DNA of 64,000 nt, from the NCBI RefSeq assembly GCF_015207425.1, contig NZ_JADEWZ010000017.1:1-64000 (forward strand), given 5' to 3'. The notes beneath the pieces were generated by a model. The model ran no database searches and had not been told where the DNA came from. It saw only the letters and a list, made by a program, of their open reading frames with translations. The DNA comes from Lusitaniella coriacea LEGE 07157 (GTDB lineage: Bacteria; Cyanobacteriota; Cyanobacteriia; Cyanobacteriales; Spirulinaceae). Each line of letters opens with the position of its first letter. Position 1 is the first letter of the stretch. Shown here in pieces: positions 45,925 through 50,551 of the stretch. The translations under genes were made by a program, and so were the position numbers.

Positions 45925-47730
45925 ATGGTTTATTGCCTCAATCCCACTTGCACTCAGCCTCACAGTCCCCTCGATAGCCAATTTTGTCAAACCTGCGGCA
46001 CGAGATTACTGCTGGGAAACCGCTATCATCCCCTCAAACTCATCGGTCAAGGCGGTTTTGGGCGCACCTACCTCGCTGAAGATTTACAAAAACCTTCACA
46101 ACCTCATTGTGTCATCAAGCAATTTTATCCCGCAGGACTAAATAATGCCCAAAAAGCGGAAGAACTCTTTGAACTCGAAGCGCTTCGCCTGGAACAGTTG
46201 GGTTCGCATTCCCAAATTCCCATCCTCTACGCGCACTTAGAACAGGACAATCGTAAGTATATCGTCCAAGAGTTTATCGACGGGAAAGATTTAGCCCAAG
46301 AACTCAAAGAACGCGGAAAGTTCGACGAAGCTGAGATTAGAAGTCTATTGCAGGATTTGCTTCCCGTTCTGCAATTTCTCCACCAAGGGGAAGTCATTCA
46401 TCGGGATATCAAGCCTGAAAATATTATTCGTCGCCGCCATAACAAAAAACTGGTGTTAGTGGATTTTGGTGCGGCAAAATACGCCACCACAACGGCTTTA
46501 GCTCAAACGGGAACGTTAATTGGCAGTGTAGAATATGTCGCTCCCGAACAGCTTAAAGGTAGAGCTGTTTTCGCCAGCGATTTGTATAGTTTAGGCGTAA
46601 CTTGCCTACACCTACTCGTGCAAATATCCCCTTTCGATTTGTTCGACCCTTATGAAAATACCTGGATATGGCGACAGTACCTCGTTGATAATCCCGTGAG
46701 CGAGGAGTTGGGGCAAATTTTGGATAAGATGGTGCAAAATGCATTGCGCGATCGTTGGCGAACAGCAGAGGAAGTACTGACTGCGCTGAATTCCTCAAAC
46801 CCCGTGAAATTCGCAAATCAAGCAGTCGCTCAATCTAAACAGCACATTCAACCCCAAACGCCGACTCTACAAATCTTTGAGTTTGAGGTCGTAACGATAT
46901 CTCTGAACCAGAGATGGTTTCGCAAAAAAAGAGAATGGCATCGTCGTCTTGAACAAGCTGAATATTTTGCAGATAACTTAGGAAGCAATGTCTTCCTGGA
47001 AATGGTTGATCTTCCTGGTGGCTGGTTTGTTATGGGTTCGCCAGAGAGGGAAGGGAGTAACAACGAAAAGCCTCAACATCAAGTTACCGTTCGACCCTTT
47101 TTTCTAGGCAAATATCCCATTACTCAGGAACAGTGGCAAGCTGTAGTCGGATTGCCTAAAGTAAAACGCACGCTCGATCGCAACCCATCTCAGTTTAAAG
47201 GATTTAAATGGTTAAAGCGCCCGGTAGAGAATGTTTCTTGGCTCGATGCGGTGGAATTCTGCGAGAGATTATCCAGGCGTACAGGACGCAAATATCGACT
47301 TCCCAGCGAGGCGGAGTGGGAGTATGCTTGTCGCGCGGGGACGACAACACCCTTTCATTTTGGCGAGACAATAACGACGGATTTGGCAAATTACGATGGG
47401 AATTATGCCGATGCCAATGTGCCGAAAGGAAAATATCGCCAAGAAACAACAGCAGTAGGAAGTTTTTTCCCCAATGGCTTTGGTCTGTACGATATGCACG
47501 GGAATGTCTGGGAATGGTGCGCCGACCATTGGCACAAGAATTATGAGGGAGCGCCAAATGATGGAACGATATGGCTGAGTCGCTATCGAGGCTCTCAACG
47601 GCTGCTGCGGGGGGGTTCCTGGTACGATGTTCCTGGGGATTGTCGCTCTGCGTATCGCACTAGGAATATTCCAGGCAAACGCTCTGCCTGTTTTGGGTTT
47701 CGGGTTGCGTGTGCGGCGGCGGGGACTTAA
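45925..47730 (+). CDS. Ser/Thr protein kinase with zinc-ribbon head and C-terminal FGE-sulfatase-like domain
   Basis: The protein has 601 residues. A Cys4 ribbon comes first (CLNPTC, then CQTC). The kinase domain has the Gly loop GQGGFGRTYLAED near residue 41, the catalytic loop HRDIKPENI (His159, Arg160, Asp161) and DFGAAK. From about residue 365 a formylglycine-generating-enzyme-like domain follows (GGWFVMGSPEREGSNNEKPQ, then YRLPSEAEWEYACRAG, then NVWEWCADHWHKN and GFRVAC). In true FGE two cysteines catalyse oxidation (CxxxxC); here the second position reads Arg (CRSAYR). It is probably a binding module and not an FGE. The likely role is signalling. Confidence 0.9.
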   Translation: MVYCLNPTCTQPHSPLDSQFCQTCGTRLLLGNRYHPLKLIGQGGFGRTYLAEDLQKPSQPHCVIKQFYPAGLNNAQKAEELFELEALRLEQLGSHSQIPILYAHLEQDNRKYIVQEFIDGKDLAQELKERGKFDEAEIRSLLQDLLPVLQFLHQGEVIHRDIKPENIIRRRHNKKLVLVDFGAAKYATTTALAQTGTLIGSVEYVAPEQLKGRAVFASDLYSLGVTCLHLLVQISPFDLFDPYENTWIWRQYLVDNPVSEELGQILDKMVQNALRDRWRTAEEVLTALNSSNPVKFANQAVAQSKQHIQPQTPTLQIFEFEVVTISLNQRWFRKKREWHRRLEQAEYFADNLGSNVFLEMVDLPGGWFVMGSPEREGSNNEKPQHQVTVRPFFLGKYPITQEQWQAVVGLPKVKRTLDRNPSQFKGFKWLKRPVENVSWLDAVEFCERLSRRTGRKYRLPSEAEWEYACRAGTTTPFHFGETITTDLANYDGNYADANVPKGKYRQETTAVGSFFPNGFGLYDMHGNVWEWCADHWHKNYEGAPNDGTIWLSRYRGSQRLLRGGSWYDVPGDCRSAYRTRNIPGKRSACFGFRVACAAAGT

Positions 47731-48559: not shown

Positions 48560-49297
48560 CTACGATTGAGAATCGCTAGGTTTCTTCGCAATCAACGCTA
48601 CTCTTGCTTTTGGCAATGCAAATTCGCCATAATTTCCCATTACTTCCACTTGAAAACCAATGCGTTCTAACTCCCCAGCCAGTTCAGCCGCGCGATACAA
48701 CTGCTGGCGATGCACTTCCTCGCTTCGCCGATAAAATTCTCCCACCTTTCGAAACGTAATGATGCGGCGCGTCAAAATGTCTCCTGCTTCAACTTTATCC
48801 ACAAGAACAACCCAGTCTTTCCCTTCTGTAAACCGTTGTTCCGTCCCCGAATCCATTTGTCCGGGTTCGACAATATCGAAGATTAATAATCCTCCCGGCA
48901 TTAAAGCATTGTAGATGTGCTGGAAGAGTTCCATGAGCCGAACGGCATTATTTTCCGCATCGAACAGGTAGTTGAAACACTCTCCCACAGAGATAACCGC
49001 ACTACAAGGGGGAATCTCCGCAGAAAAGAGCGATCGCGCTTGAAATTCTGCTTCTGGAACTCTGGTTTGGGCAATTTCGATCAGAGATTCTGAAATATCA
49101 ATACCCAGCACTCGATACTCTTTGCTCGTAAGGACTTCCGCTAATAATCCACTCCCGCACCCTAACTCTACAATTAACCCTTCTCGTATCCGATCGCGCT
49201 CTAAAATAGCCAAAATACCCGGTGCAGATTTAAGGGTGTAGTTACTAAATCCGACATCTTGAATATAGGCTAAATCTTCTCGATACCAATTGTTCAT
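48560..49297 (-). CDS. class I SAM-dependent methyltransferase
   Basis: The protein has 245 residues. Motif I is VELGCGSGLLAEVL near residue 43, then VLGIDISESLIEIAQ, CSAVISVGECFNYLF and LMPGGLLIFDIVEPG. The substrate is not predictable, and no RNA-binding addition is obvious. It starts 26 bp after the stop of the Thg1-like gene on the same strand, so the three genes (kinase, Thg1-like, methyltransferase) probably form one transcript. Confidence 0.88.
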   Translation of the reverse strand: MNNWYREDLAYIQDVGFSNYTLKSAPGILAILERDRIREGLIVELGCGSGLLAEVLTSKEYRVLGIDISESLIEIAQTRVPEAEFQARSLFSAEIPPCSAVISVGECFNYLFDAENNAVRLMELFQHIYNALMPGGLLIFDIVEPGQMDSGTEQRFTEGKDWVVLVDKVEAGDILTRRIITFRKVGEFYRRSEEVHRQQLYRAAELAGELERIGFQVEVMGNYGEFALPKARVALIAKKPSDSQS

Positions 49298-49323
49298 TAT
49301 TTTGGGAATCTAGCGATAAATAC

Positions 49324-50112
49324 TTATTCTACAAGTTCCATATCGGGATGTTCTCGAAGTACTAAGTCTCGAATAAATGCACTGTAACTATCTTTCATTG
49401 GCAGTTCTATATCGATCTTAATTTGCCTTCTCATTGCAAAAACTTTTTCCCCTGTTACCGGATTTATCGCTTCTTTTTGATAAGATTCCCAATACAAACC
49501 AACACCGCGCTTGTGCCAGTTCGGTAAGTCATTAAAATTCATTCCCGCTTGCCGATACAGCAATTCATTTTTATCGCTAACTGATAACCGTTCTAATTTT
49601 TTTGTTGCTCCTCTTGCACTGTCCCCACTTCTGCGTAGCATCCAATAGCAGTGAGCATTCAAGGCATTACGATGAGCATCTTGACTGCGCCAACGGAAAT
49701 AGTCAACGACGAAATCGAGAGTCGGAAGTTGAGAAATTCGACAATCGAAGGCAGCAAGATTGCCAAGTAACAACGAGAATTTTGCACTTGCTTCTGCTGC
49801 AAAGATGGAATTTAGTTTTCGCAATTTTCGACTAAAAGTTTCTTCCTCGCGGTGCAGCAAAAGTGAGATTTCGTCACTTTGCGTGTAACCATAAACAATT
49901 CGGAATCCACAATTCATCAAATGTTCCGTCGTAGACACCATATAATCTCGAAACCGAGCATCAAAGGGAGACTCAAACGGATGTACTTCTTTTGTTAAGC
50001 GCGTAAAATTGCGTCCGTCAATCCGCGCTACGATGAAAATCCCTGGGAGTACGCACAGATCGTGAGTTGTCTCAAAAACTCTCAGTTTTGCATCTAATTC
50101 TTTAAATTTCAT
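49324..50112 (-). CDS. Thg1-like 3'-5' RNA polymerase (tRNA-His guanylyltransferase family)
   Basis: The protein has 262 residues. The metal-binding residues of the family are visible: Asp32 and Gly33 (RIDGRNFTRL), then Asp80 and Glu81 (YTQSDEISLL). The RKLRKLNSIFAAEASAKFS and RSGDSARGATKKL segments are typical helices. Eukaryotic Thg1 adds G-1 to tRNA-His; bacterial homologues (TLPs) mostly extend or repair 5'-truncated tRNAs from the 3' side of the template, using a 5'-triphosphate or 5'-phosphate activated by ATP. Its gene overlaps the P-loop kinase gene by 11 bp. Confidence 0.9.
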   Translation of the reverse strand: MKFKELDAKLRVFETTHDLCVLPGIFIVARIDGRNFTRLTKEVHPFESPFDARFRDYMVSTTEHLMNCGFRIVYGYTQSDEISLLLHREEETFSRKLRKLNSIFAAEASAKFSLLLGNLAAFDCRISQLPTLDFVVDYFRWRSQDAHRNALNAHCYWMLRRSGDSARGATKKLERLSVSDKNELLYRQAGMNFNDLPNWHKRGVGLYWESYQKEAINPVTGEKVFAMRRQIKIDIELPMKDSYSAFIRDLVLREHPDMELVE

Positions 50113-50551
50113 TCACCCAATTCTCAACAATAAAACCATTTTCTGGTGACAATCGAACGTAATAGAGTTCGTCAAAACCTTCTTCGTATTTGGGAATGAC
50201 CAATCGTGTGTGCGTCCCTCGAATTCCTTTTTCTGGAATTTGCCGTTCTAAACTGCGATTTTGATTGCGTTGGATCGAATCGGCAATCTTTGATTCAAAA
50301 TAATACCCAATAATGTGAGTTTTTTTGTTTTTTGCTGGATCGATGTAGCGCTTTCGCTCTTCAGGCGTTGGGTTTGTATTATCAACAACAAAGGATTGAG
50401 TAATCTCAAGGCACGTTTCGAGGAGTCGTTTTTCTCGATGTCTGGTTTTAAGCATATCCAGATTAATACGAATGTGCGTATGAAAGAAATATCGATCGTA
50501 AAATGTTGATTTGCCACTTGCTTGAATTCCCACAAAAATAATAGCTTGCAC
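50102..50551 (-). CDS. P-loop polynucleotide-kinase-like ATPase
   Basis: The 149-residue protein is one small P-loop domain. Walker A is GIQASGKST (residues 8-16). A later INLDMLKTRHREKRLLETCL and VVDNTNPTPEERKRYIDPAK segment resembles the 5'-kinase half of Pnkp. It overlaps the Thg1-like start by 11 bp, so the two are translated from one message. A kinase that supplies a 5'-phosphate end next to a 3'-5' polymerase fits RNA end-repair. The target is unknown; the activity is inferred only from the fold and from context. Confidence 0.82.
   Translation of the reverse strand: MQAIIFVGIQASGKSTFYDRYFFHTHIRINLDMLKTRHREKRLLETCLEITQSFVVDNTNPTPEERKRYIDPAKNKKTHIIGYYFESKIADSIQRNQNRSLERQIPEKGIRGTHTRLVIPKYEEGFDELYYVRLSPENGFIVENWVNEI

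What the first reader, a model, noticed from the sequence alone, without database searches (positions are those of the whole stretch)
48560..50551. Polynucleotide-kinase-like, Thg1-like and methyltransferase genes in one operon
Three genes lie on the same strand with an 11-bp overlap (kinase/Thg1-like) and a 26-bp gap (Thg1-like/methyltransferase). Thg1-like proteins in bacteria repair RNA 5' ends by adding nucleotides in the 3'-5' direction, and they need an activatable 5' end. A 5'-kinase of the Pnkp type next to it would provide one. A methyltransferase could modify the product. Together they look like an RNA-end repair module. The overlap is seen; the joint function is inferred.
Basis: partly seen in the sequence, partly recalled or inferred. 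Interest (0 to 1): 0.7.

Follow-up and report, generated by a model that had tools for sequence, protein, structure and literature searches.

The report
Kinase–Thg1 gene pair for RNA repair
A cyanobacterium carries a known two-gene pair, an RNA 5'-end kinase and a backwards-growing RNA polymerase that probably mend broken RNA ends; the methyltransferase beside it looks like a chance neighbour, and distant relatives of the pair sit inside histidine-synthesis operons, which hints at histidine tRNA as a target.

Summary
In detail: three minus-strand genes, an 11-bp kinase/Thg1 overlap and a 26-bp gap to a methyltransferase. The kinase is a PNKP/Pnkp-type polynucleotide kinase by sequence and predicted fold; the second gene is a Thg1-like 3'-5' polymerase with its motifs. 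The pair is widely conserved: a kinase accompanies Thg1 in 105 of 115 loci examined, 68 with the same 11-bp overlap; in 386 cyanobacterial genomes each gene occurs in 13, both in 12. The methyltransferase is not part of it: 0 of 114 other loci hold a homologue. The Thg1-kinase linkage and its RNA-repair reading were published in 2010 (PMC2904730). What I did not find in print: in Hymenobacteraceae the pair is inserted between hisC and hisB (11 of 18 loci; 10 of 10 Thg1-less relatives with hisD have an uninterrupted operon), in Tenacibaculum between hisD and hisC, and in two Nostoc it lies 18 bp behind the histidyl-tRNA synthetase gene. Elsewhere it travels with RlaP, Hen1, Pnkp or RtcB. tRNA-His genes of 18 of 18 carriers checked already encode G-1, so repair, not first synthesis, is likely. 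No activity was tested.

The parts
50102..50551 (-). PNKP/Pnkp-type polynucleotide 5'-kinase (149 aa, GTG start)
   Evidence: AAA_33, PNK models; profile of 73 relatives finds PNKP in PDB at 1.9e-21; AF2 model pLDDT 95.4 matches mammalian PNKP kinase domain at Z 18.9, rmsd 1.6 over 138 residues; invariant K14, D32, D57, N60, R66, R99, E124 in 73 aligned kinases
49324..50112 (-). Thg1-like protein (TLP), 3'-5' RNA polymerase (262 aa)
   Evidence: Pfam Thg1 2.8e-32 and Thg1C 2.8e-17; best PDB relative 5axk E 4.9e-27; RIDGRxF and SDE motifs intact
50102..50112 (-). 11-bp overlap of kinase stop and Thg1 start (probable translational coupling)
   Evidence: sequence; exactly the same overlap in 68 of 105 kinase-bearing loci
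48560..49297 (-). class I SAM methyltransferase (245 aa); adjacent, possibly co-transcribed, but not a conserved member of the module
   Evidence: Methyltransf_25 1.1e-10; 0 of 114 other loci hold a homologue; not Hen1

Best explanation
The kinase and the Thg1-like protein form an overlapping-gene, horizontally spread two-enzyme module that mends RNA 5' ends, most likely of tRNAs. The kinase puts a phosphate on a 5'-OH left by an RNase or toxin; the Thg1-like protein activates that 5'-phosphate with ATP or GTP and adds the missing nucleotides in the 3'-5' direction, copying the opposite strand of the acceptor stem. The methyltransferase is an unrelated neighbour. Shown here: gene order, families, motifs, fold, conservation. 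Known from earlier work on other Thg1-like proteins: activation of a 5'-monophosphate and templated repair of 5'-truncated tRNA in vitro. Inferred: that this kinase feeds this polymerase, and that tRNA is the substrate.
For: Kinase beside Thg1 in 105 of 115 loci from many phyla, 68 with an identical 11-bp overlap. Both genes in 12 of 386 cyanobacterial genomes, each in 13 (Fisher p 9e-21 with phylogeny ignored). Kinase fold and motifs nearest to PNKP and C. thermocellum Pnkp. Thg1 family with its motifs. Other RNA-repair genes at the module elsewhere: RlaP next to or near Thg1 (L013, L015, L021, L198; plasmid L260), Hen1 and RlaP on a Deinococcus plasmid, full Pnkp (L029), DUF2828 Ro60-like protein and RtcB in Oscillospiraceae. 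Carrier tRNA-His genes already encode G-1 in 18 of 18 checked, so first synthesis of G-1 is not needed. Templated repair of 5'-truncated tRNA by bacterial and archaeal TLPs is reported in PMC6471195 (passages); 5'-monophosphate activation in PMC3701042 (passages).
Against: No activity was tested. Ten of 115 loci have Thg1 without a detectable kinase; one cyanobacterium (G174) has Thg1 alone and one (G229) the kinase alone. The 80 loci were found by Thg1 similarity, so they are not a random sample. The kinase fold is shared with small-molecule kinases and zeta-type toxins (Z 13-14). Nothing in the window itself names the RNA.
Confidence: 0.74

Rival explanations
1. The module is dedicated to histidine tRNA: it restores the G-1 end (and further acceptor-stem bases if lost) of damaged tRNA-His so that HisRS can charge it, which is why it repeatedly entered histidine operons.
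For: hisG-hisD-hisC-kinase-Thg1-hisB in 11 of 18 Hymenobacteraceae Thg1 loci, with uninterrupted hisG-hisD-hisC-hisB in 10 of 10 Thg1-less relatives that had hisD (12 asked); hisG-hisD-kinase-Thg1-hisC in 4 of 4 Tenacibaculum loci, hisB seen in 3 (L036 ends in hisC); Thg1 alone before hisC in one Prevotella MAG, L050; histidyl-tRNA synthetase gene 18 bp upstream of the kinase in two Nostoc. The his label needs 3 changes on the Thg1 tree.
Against: 16 of 115 loci only, in few lineages, none in the 12 cyanobacterial loci. Strongly supported branches force only one origin. The Prevotella Thg1 has lost the RIDGRxF motif. The Nostoc HisRS is the ordinary HisRS of its family with or without Thg1, so it shows adjacency only. 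Insertion into a well-expressed operon could have nothing to do with histidine. No T-box in 29 loci of Bacillota, Treponema and others; no tRNA-His gene near the module in 60 others.
Confidence: 0.3
2. The kinase acts on a small molecule or on a protein-bound nucleotide, and its link with Thg1 is regulatory rather than a supply of 5'-phosphate RNA.
For: The fold also resembles PSTK (Z 15.2), zeta toxin (14.3) and PFKFB (13.7); kinase without Thg1 exists (G229).
Against: Nearest by sequence and fold are polynucleotide kinases; PNK-like motifs invariant in 73 relatives; neighbours such as Hen1, RlaP, Pnkp and RtcB act on RNA ends.
Confidence: 0.1
3. All three genes, methyltransferase included, form one RNA-end repair and marking operon.
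For: Same strand, 26-bp gap; a different RNA-repair methyltransferase, Hen1, does accompany the pair on a Deinococcus plasmid.
Against: No homologue of this methyltransferase at 114 other loci; only weak, generic class I matches; Hen1 model 16.9 bits vs 340.
Confidence: 0.08

Closest known systems
Bacterial Thg1-polynucleotide kinase neighbourhood (Anantharaman, Iyer, Aravind 2010, PMC2904730)
   Same: The same two gene families side by side and the same proposed logic: the kinase makes the 5'-phosphate that Thg1 uses; RNA-repair role proposed
   Different: That paper names MACRO-domain and RNA-ligase neighbours; the passages read name no his operon or HisRS link; here a non-conserved methyltransferase follows
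Bacillus thuringiensis and archaeal Thg1-like proteins (PMC3701042, PMC6471195)
   Same: Thg1 family of TLP type; templated 3'-5' addition to 5'-truncated tRNA is the expected chemistry
   Different: No kinase partner is discussed in the passages read; sequence is far from BtTLP (4kgk, E 3.2e-19)
Kinase domain of C. thermocellum Pnkp (Pnkp/Hen1 RNA-repair system) and of mammalian PNKP
   Same: Fold (Z 18.1 and 18.9) and P-loop, Asp and lid-Arg motifs
   Different: Stand-alone 149-aa kinase without phosphatase or ligase domains
rsr-yrlBA-rtcBA RNA-repair operon (PMC7790460)
   Same: The Oscillospiraceae relatives of the pair share their locus with RtcB, a Ro60-like DUF2828 protein and tRNA-like RNAs
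   Different: No RtcA or RtcR was seen there, WYL genes instead, and several RNAs in an array; none of this is in the window

Membership tests
Thg1 superfamily, TLP branch | Thg1 catalytic and C-terminal domains above cut-off | tested here: met
   PF04446 111.8 bits vs 29.2; PF14413 63.5 vs 26.3
Thg1 superfamily, TLP branch | catalytic carboxylates (RIDGRxF Asp, SDE Asp/Glu; identities recalled) | tested here: met
   D32, D80, E81 present in the window protein; SDE invariant in 12 aligned relatives, D32 in 11 of 12
Thg1 superfamily, TLP branch | 3'-5' templated nucleotide addition | not testable with these tools
   needs an enzyme assay
PNKP/Pnkp-type polynucleotide kinase | P-loop kinase fold nearest to PNKP/Pnkp | tested here: met
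   Z 18.9, rmsd 1.6 over 138 residues to 1yj5; Z 18.1 to 4gp6
PNKP/Pnkp-type polynucleotide kinase | conserved Walker Lys, catalytic Asp and lid Arg | tested here: met
   K14, D32, R99 invariant in 73 aligned kinases; roles assigned from recall of PNK structures
PNKP/Pnkp-type polynucleotide kinase | 5'-OH RNA phosphorylation | not testable with these tools
   needs an enzyme assay
Thg1-PNK module of 2010 | kinase gene next to Thg1 across lineages | tested here: met
   105 of 115 loci; 12 of 13 Thg1-bearing cyanobacterial genomes
Hen1 RNA-repair methyltransferase (for the window methyltransferase) | TIGR04074 above cut-off | tested here: not met
   16.9 bits vs 340
Three-gene operon with methyltransferase | methyltransferase conserved beside the pair | tested here: not met
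   0 of 114 other loci
His-operon-linked kinase-Thg1 | his biosynthesis genes or HisRS flank the pair | tested here: not met
   the window pair is flanked by the methyltransferase, Uma2 and a glycogen debranching enzyme; the two PF13393 proteins lie on contigs C7 and C43, the window on C17

The most novel reading that the evidence does not exclude
The kinase-Thg1 pair is a portable quality-control device for histidine tRNA: it re-phosphorylates and rebuilds the G-1 end of nicked or over-trimmed tRNA-His. It has entered his operons at least twice at different positions (between hisC and hisB, and between hisD and hisC), and once the place right behind the HisRS gene, so that tRNA-His repair is expressed together with histidine supply or charging. 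That would give bacterial Thg1-like proteins, whose physiological substrate is open, a defined job.
Probability: 0.27. Interest if true: 0.66.

Novelty: new member of a known kind. Interest (0 to 1): 0.42.

Why it matters
What Thg1-like proteins do in bacteria is an open question, since the carriers' tRNA-His genes already encode G-1 (18 of 18 checked). A kinase partner with an identical overlap across phyla, plus insertion into histidine operons in two lineages with the empty site shown in one, turns that into direct experiments in Hymenobacter, Tenacibaculum or Nostoc.

Tried and rejected
Methyltransferase as a partner: rejected, no homologue at 114 other loci (several loci end at a contig end soon after Thg1). 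HisRS type as a correlate of Thg1 in cyanobacteria: rejected, the divergent HisRS of L002 is the HisRS of family f6 whether Thg1 is present (G024, G091, G174, G338, G340) or absent (G019, G022, G030, G042, G048, G051, G064). Loss of encoded G-1 as the reason for Thg1: rejected, G-1 and C73 encoded in 18 of 18; in a nineteenth genome, G391, the pattern gave no tRNA-His to check. T-box regulation: no Rfam match in 29 loci. tRNA-His gene near the module: none in 60 loci. Close viral relatives: none confirmed; distant Thg1 in 117 phage records, all under 60% identity. PADLOC: nothing for Thg1, only weak hits for the other two genes. Promoter and terminator scans gave no more than shuffles.

Limits of the counts: the 80 loci were chosen by Thg1 similarity and are the best 80 of 114. 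Hymenobacteraceae and the family of Tenacibaculum were sampled because L033 and L023 had shown his genes, so 16 of 115 his-linked loci is not a frequency in nature. Neighbour genes were called by a simple longest-ORF rule that picked the wrong strand in parts of L059 and L072; only about 45 of 953 called genes were scanned with Pfam. The tree dropped L049, L233 and L235 by length. The kinase alignment holds 73 of 105 kinases. The Poisson estimate (0.25 his or HisRS adjacencies expected in an assumed 45 independent contexts) rests on assumed numbers and is not used as evidence.

Full report
What is there. On the minus strand lie a GTG-started 149-aa ORF (50102-50551), a 262-aa ORF (49324-50112) and a 245-aa ORF (48560-49297); the first two overlap by 11 bp and 26 bp part the second from the third. 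The window lies in genome G000, which has one Thg1 gene; its Thg1 groups with cyanobacterial ones. Downstream is a Uma2 gene, upstream a divergent glycogen debranching enzyme gene.

The kinase. It matches AAA_33 and, far under their cut-offs, the PNK and Pnkp models. A profile of 73 relatives finds PNKP chains at 1.9e-21 and C. thermocellum Pnkp (4gp6) at 2.5e-12. The predicted model (pLDDT 95.4) fits the PNKP kinase domain at Z 18.9, rmsd 1.6 over 138 residues, and Pnkp at Z 18.1; O-phosphoseryl-tRNA(Sec) kinase follows at 15.2, zeta toxin at 14.3, T4 Pnk and PFKFB at 13.7. A polynucleotide kinase is thus the best reading, not a proven one.

The polymerase. Thg1 and Thg1C domains are well above cut-off; the best solved relative is the Thg1-like protein 5axk; RIDGRxF and SDE motifs are intact.

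Conservation of the pair. In 115 loci (80 from named genomes, 12 cyanobacterial, 22 from the Bacteroidota searches, and the window) a kinase on the same strand accompanies Thg1 in 105; the overlap is exactly 11 bp in 68 and 4 bp in 10. In a set of 386 cyanobacterial genomes not chosen for Thg1, Thg1 is in 13, the kinase at E below 1e-30 in 13, and both in 12; two weaker kinase hits (G053, G062) were not counted. The patchy spread, with relatives in other phyla still about 55-73% identical, points to horizontal transfer. The nearest relative, L098, has the pair without the methyltransferase.

The methyltransferase. It is a generic class I enzyme with no homologue at 114 other loci. It is not Hen1, the methyltransferase that does accompany the pair on a Deinococcus plasmid.

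Other company of the pair. RlaP lies directly behind Thg1 in L013, L015 and on a Thiodictyon plasmid, and nearby in L021, L198 and on the Deinococcus plasmid; a complete Pnkp lies behind it in L029; ADP-ribosylglycohydrolases lie behind it in L014 and L018. RlaP, Hen1 and Pnkp are RNA-repair genes and support the general function.

Histidine link. In Hymenobacteraceae 18 of 150 genomes have Thg1, all 18 with the kinase; in 11 the order is hisG-hisD-hisC-kinase-Thg1-hisB, in 7 no his gene was seen. Of 12 Thg1-less relatives asked, 10 had hisD, and all 10 show hisG-hisD-hisC-hisB uninterrupted. In four Tenacibaculum loci the pair lies between hisD and hisC. A Prevotella MAG has Thg1 without kinase before hisC, but it has lost the RIDGRxF motif. 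Five further Bacteroidota loci (L196-L198, L236, L237) have the pair with no his gene. On the Thg1 tree the his label needs three changes, though strongly supported branches force only one; the different positions in the operon argue for at least two entries. In two Nostoc the kinase ORF lies 18 bp behind a HisRS gene; each of these genomes has just one further PF13393 protein, which I read as HisZ. Against over-reading: this HisRS is normal for its family with or without Thg1, and nothing histidine-related is near the window's pair. tRNA-His genes in 18 of 18 carriers checked encode G-1 and C73.

Mechanism. Best supported: 5'-OH RNA is phosphorylated by the kinase, then activated and extended 3'-5' by the Thg1-like protein. 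The last two steps are reported for other Thg1-like proteins (PMC3701042 and PMC6471195, passages); the kinase step and the hand-over are inferred, as they were in PMC2904730 (passages).

Novelty. The pair and its reading have been in print since 2010. The his-operon insertion I did not find in print: a search for 'Thg1' with 'histidine biosynthesis' returned one paper, where the phrase is the title of a reference; searches on Thg1-like proteins in bacteria gave four papers, of which I read passages of two. The library is open-access only, and a 2016 survey of RNA repair that I recall was not held, so it may well touch on some of this.

A by-product. In four Oscillospiraceae loci (L059, L061, L072, L078) the pair shares its neighbourhood with two WYL-type genes (the second of the L078 pair has no Pfam hit; the L059 and L072 pairs are partly read by position and cluster) followed by an array of small structured RNAs; in L059 and L072 a DUF2828/DUF7788 Ro60-like gene and RtcB follow, with Pfam run on one of each. 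Each RNA has a 7-9 bp outer helix and an ACAGCAA-like motif; some carry tRNA-like domains. Hairpins with a 5-bp stem and a 7-base loop with T33 and a purine at 37 number 12 in 22 units, four of them T-arms, against a mean of 0.46 and a maximum of 3 in 500 sets of shuffles. Units were chosen by their helix, so the helix itself is not independent evidence; the scan of all loci showed such clusters only in these four. A search of papers for such arrays gave nothing of the kind in its listing.

Noticed in passing
L059:9036-9676, L061:4952-6084, L072:9040-9645, L078:11266-12209: Arrays of small RNAs (outer helix starting AAR, ACAGCAA-like motif, tRNA-like or anticodon-stem-loop-like inserts with different anticodons) near kinase-Thg1 and behind WYL-type genes; in L059 and L072 followed by a DUF2828/DUF7788 Ro60-like gene and RtcB. 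Possibly a decoy or sensor array for anticodon nucleases; no Rfam family other than tRNA matched in L059, L061 and L072.
   Followed up: partly
L033 and L219-L228: Kinase-Thg1 inserted between hisC and hisB of the his operon in 11 Hymenobacteraceae loci; in L219 the kinase is split between two frames.
   Followed up: yes
L259:3525-8732: Deinococcus taeanensis plasmid cluster kinase-Thg1-hypothetical-DUF705-Hen1-RlaP: an RNA-repair cluster on a plasmid typed as mobilizable.
   Followed up: partly
L013:2402-4083, L015:5212-6521, L260:4016-5774: Thg1 directly followed by RlaP; no kinase was found in L013 and L015, and none is annotated upstream of Thg1 in L260.
   Followed up: no
L014:6779-7714, L018:2846-3814: ADP-ribosylglycohydrolase gene directly behind kinase-Thg1 in two Bacillota MAGs.
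   Followed up: no
L050:6001-6741: Thg1 inside a Prevotella his operon without a kinase and with the RIDGRxF motif lost: probably decaying.
   Followed up: partly
window 45925-47730: Protein kinase domain fused to a sulfatase-modifying-factor (FGE) domain.
   Followed up: no
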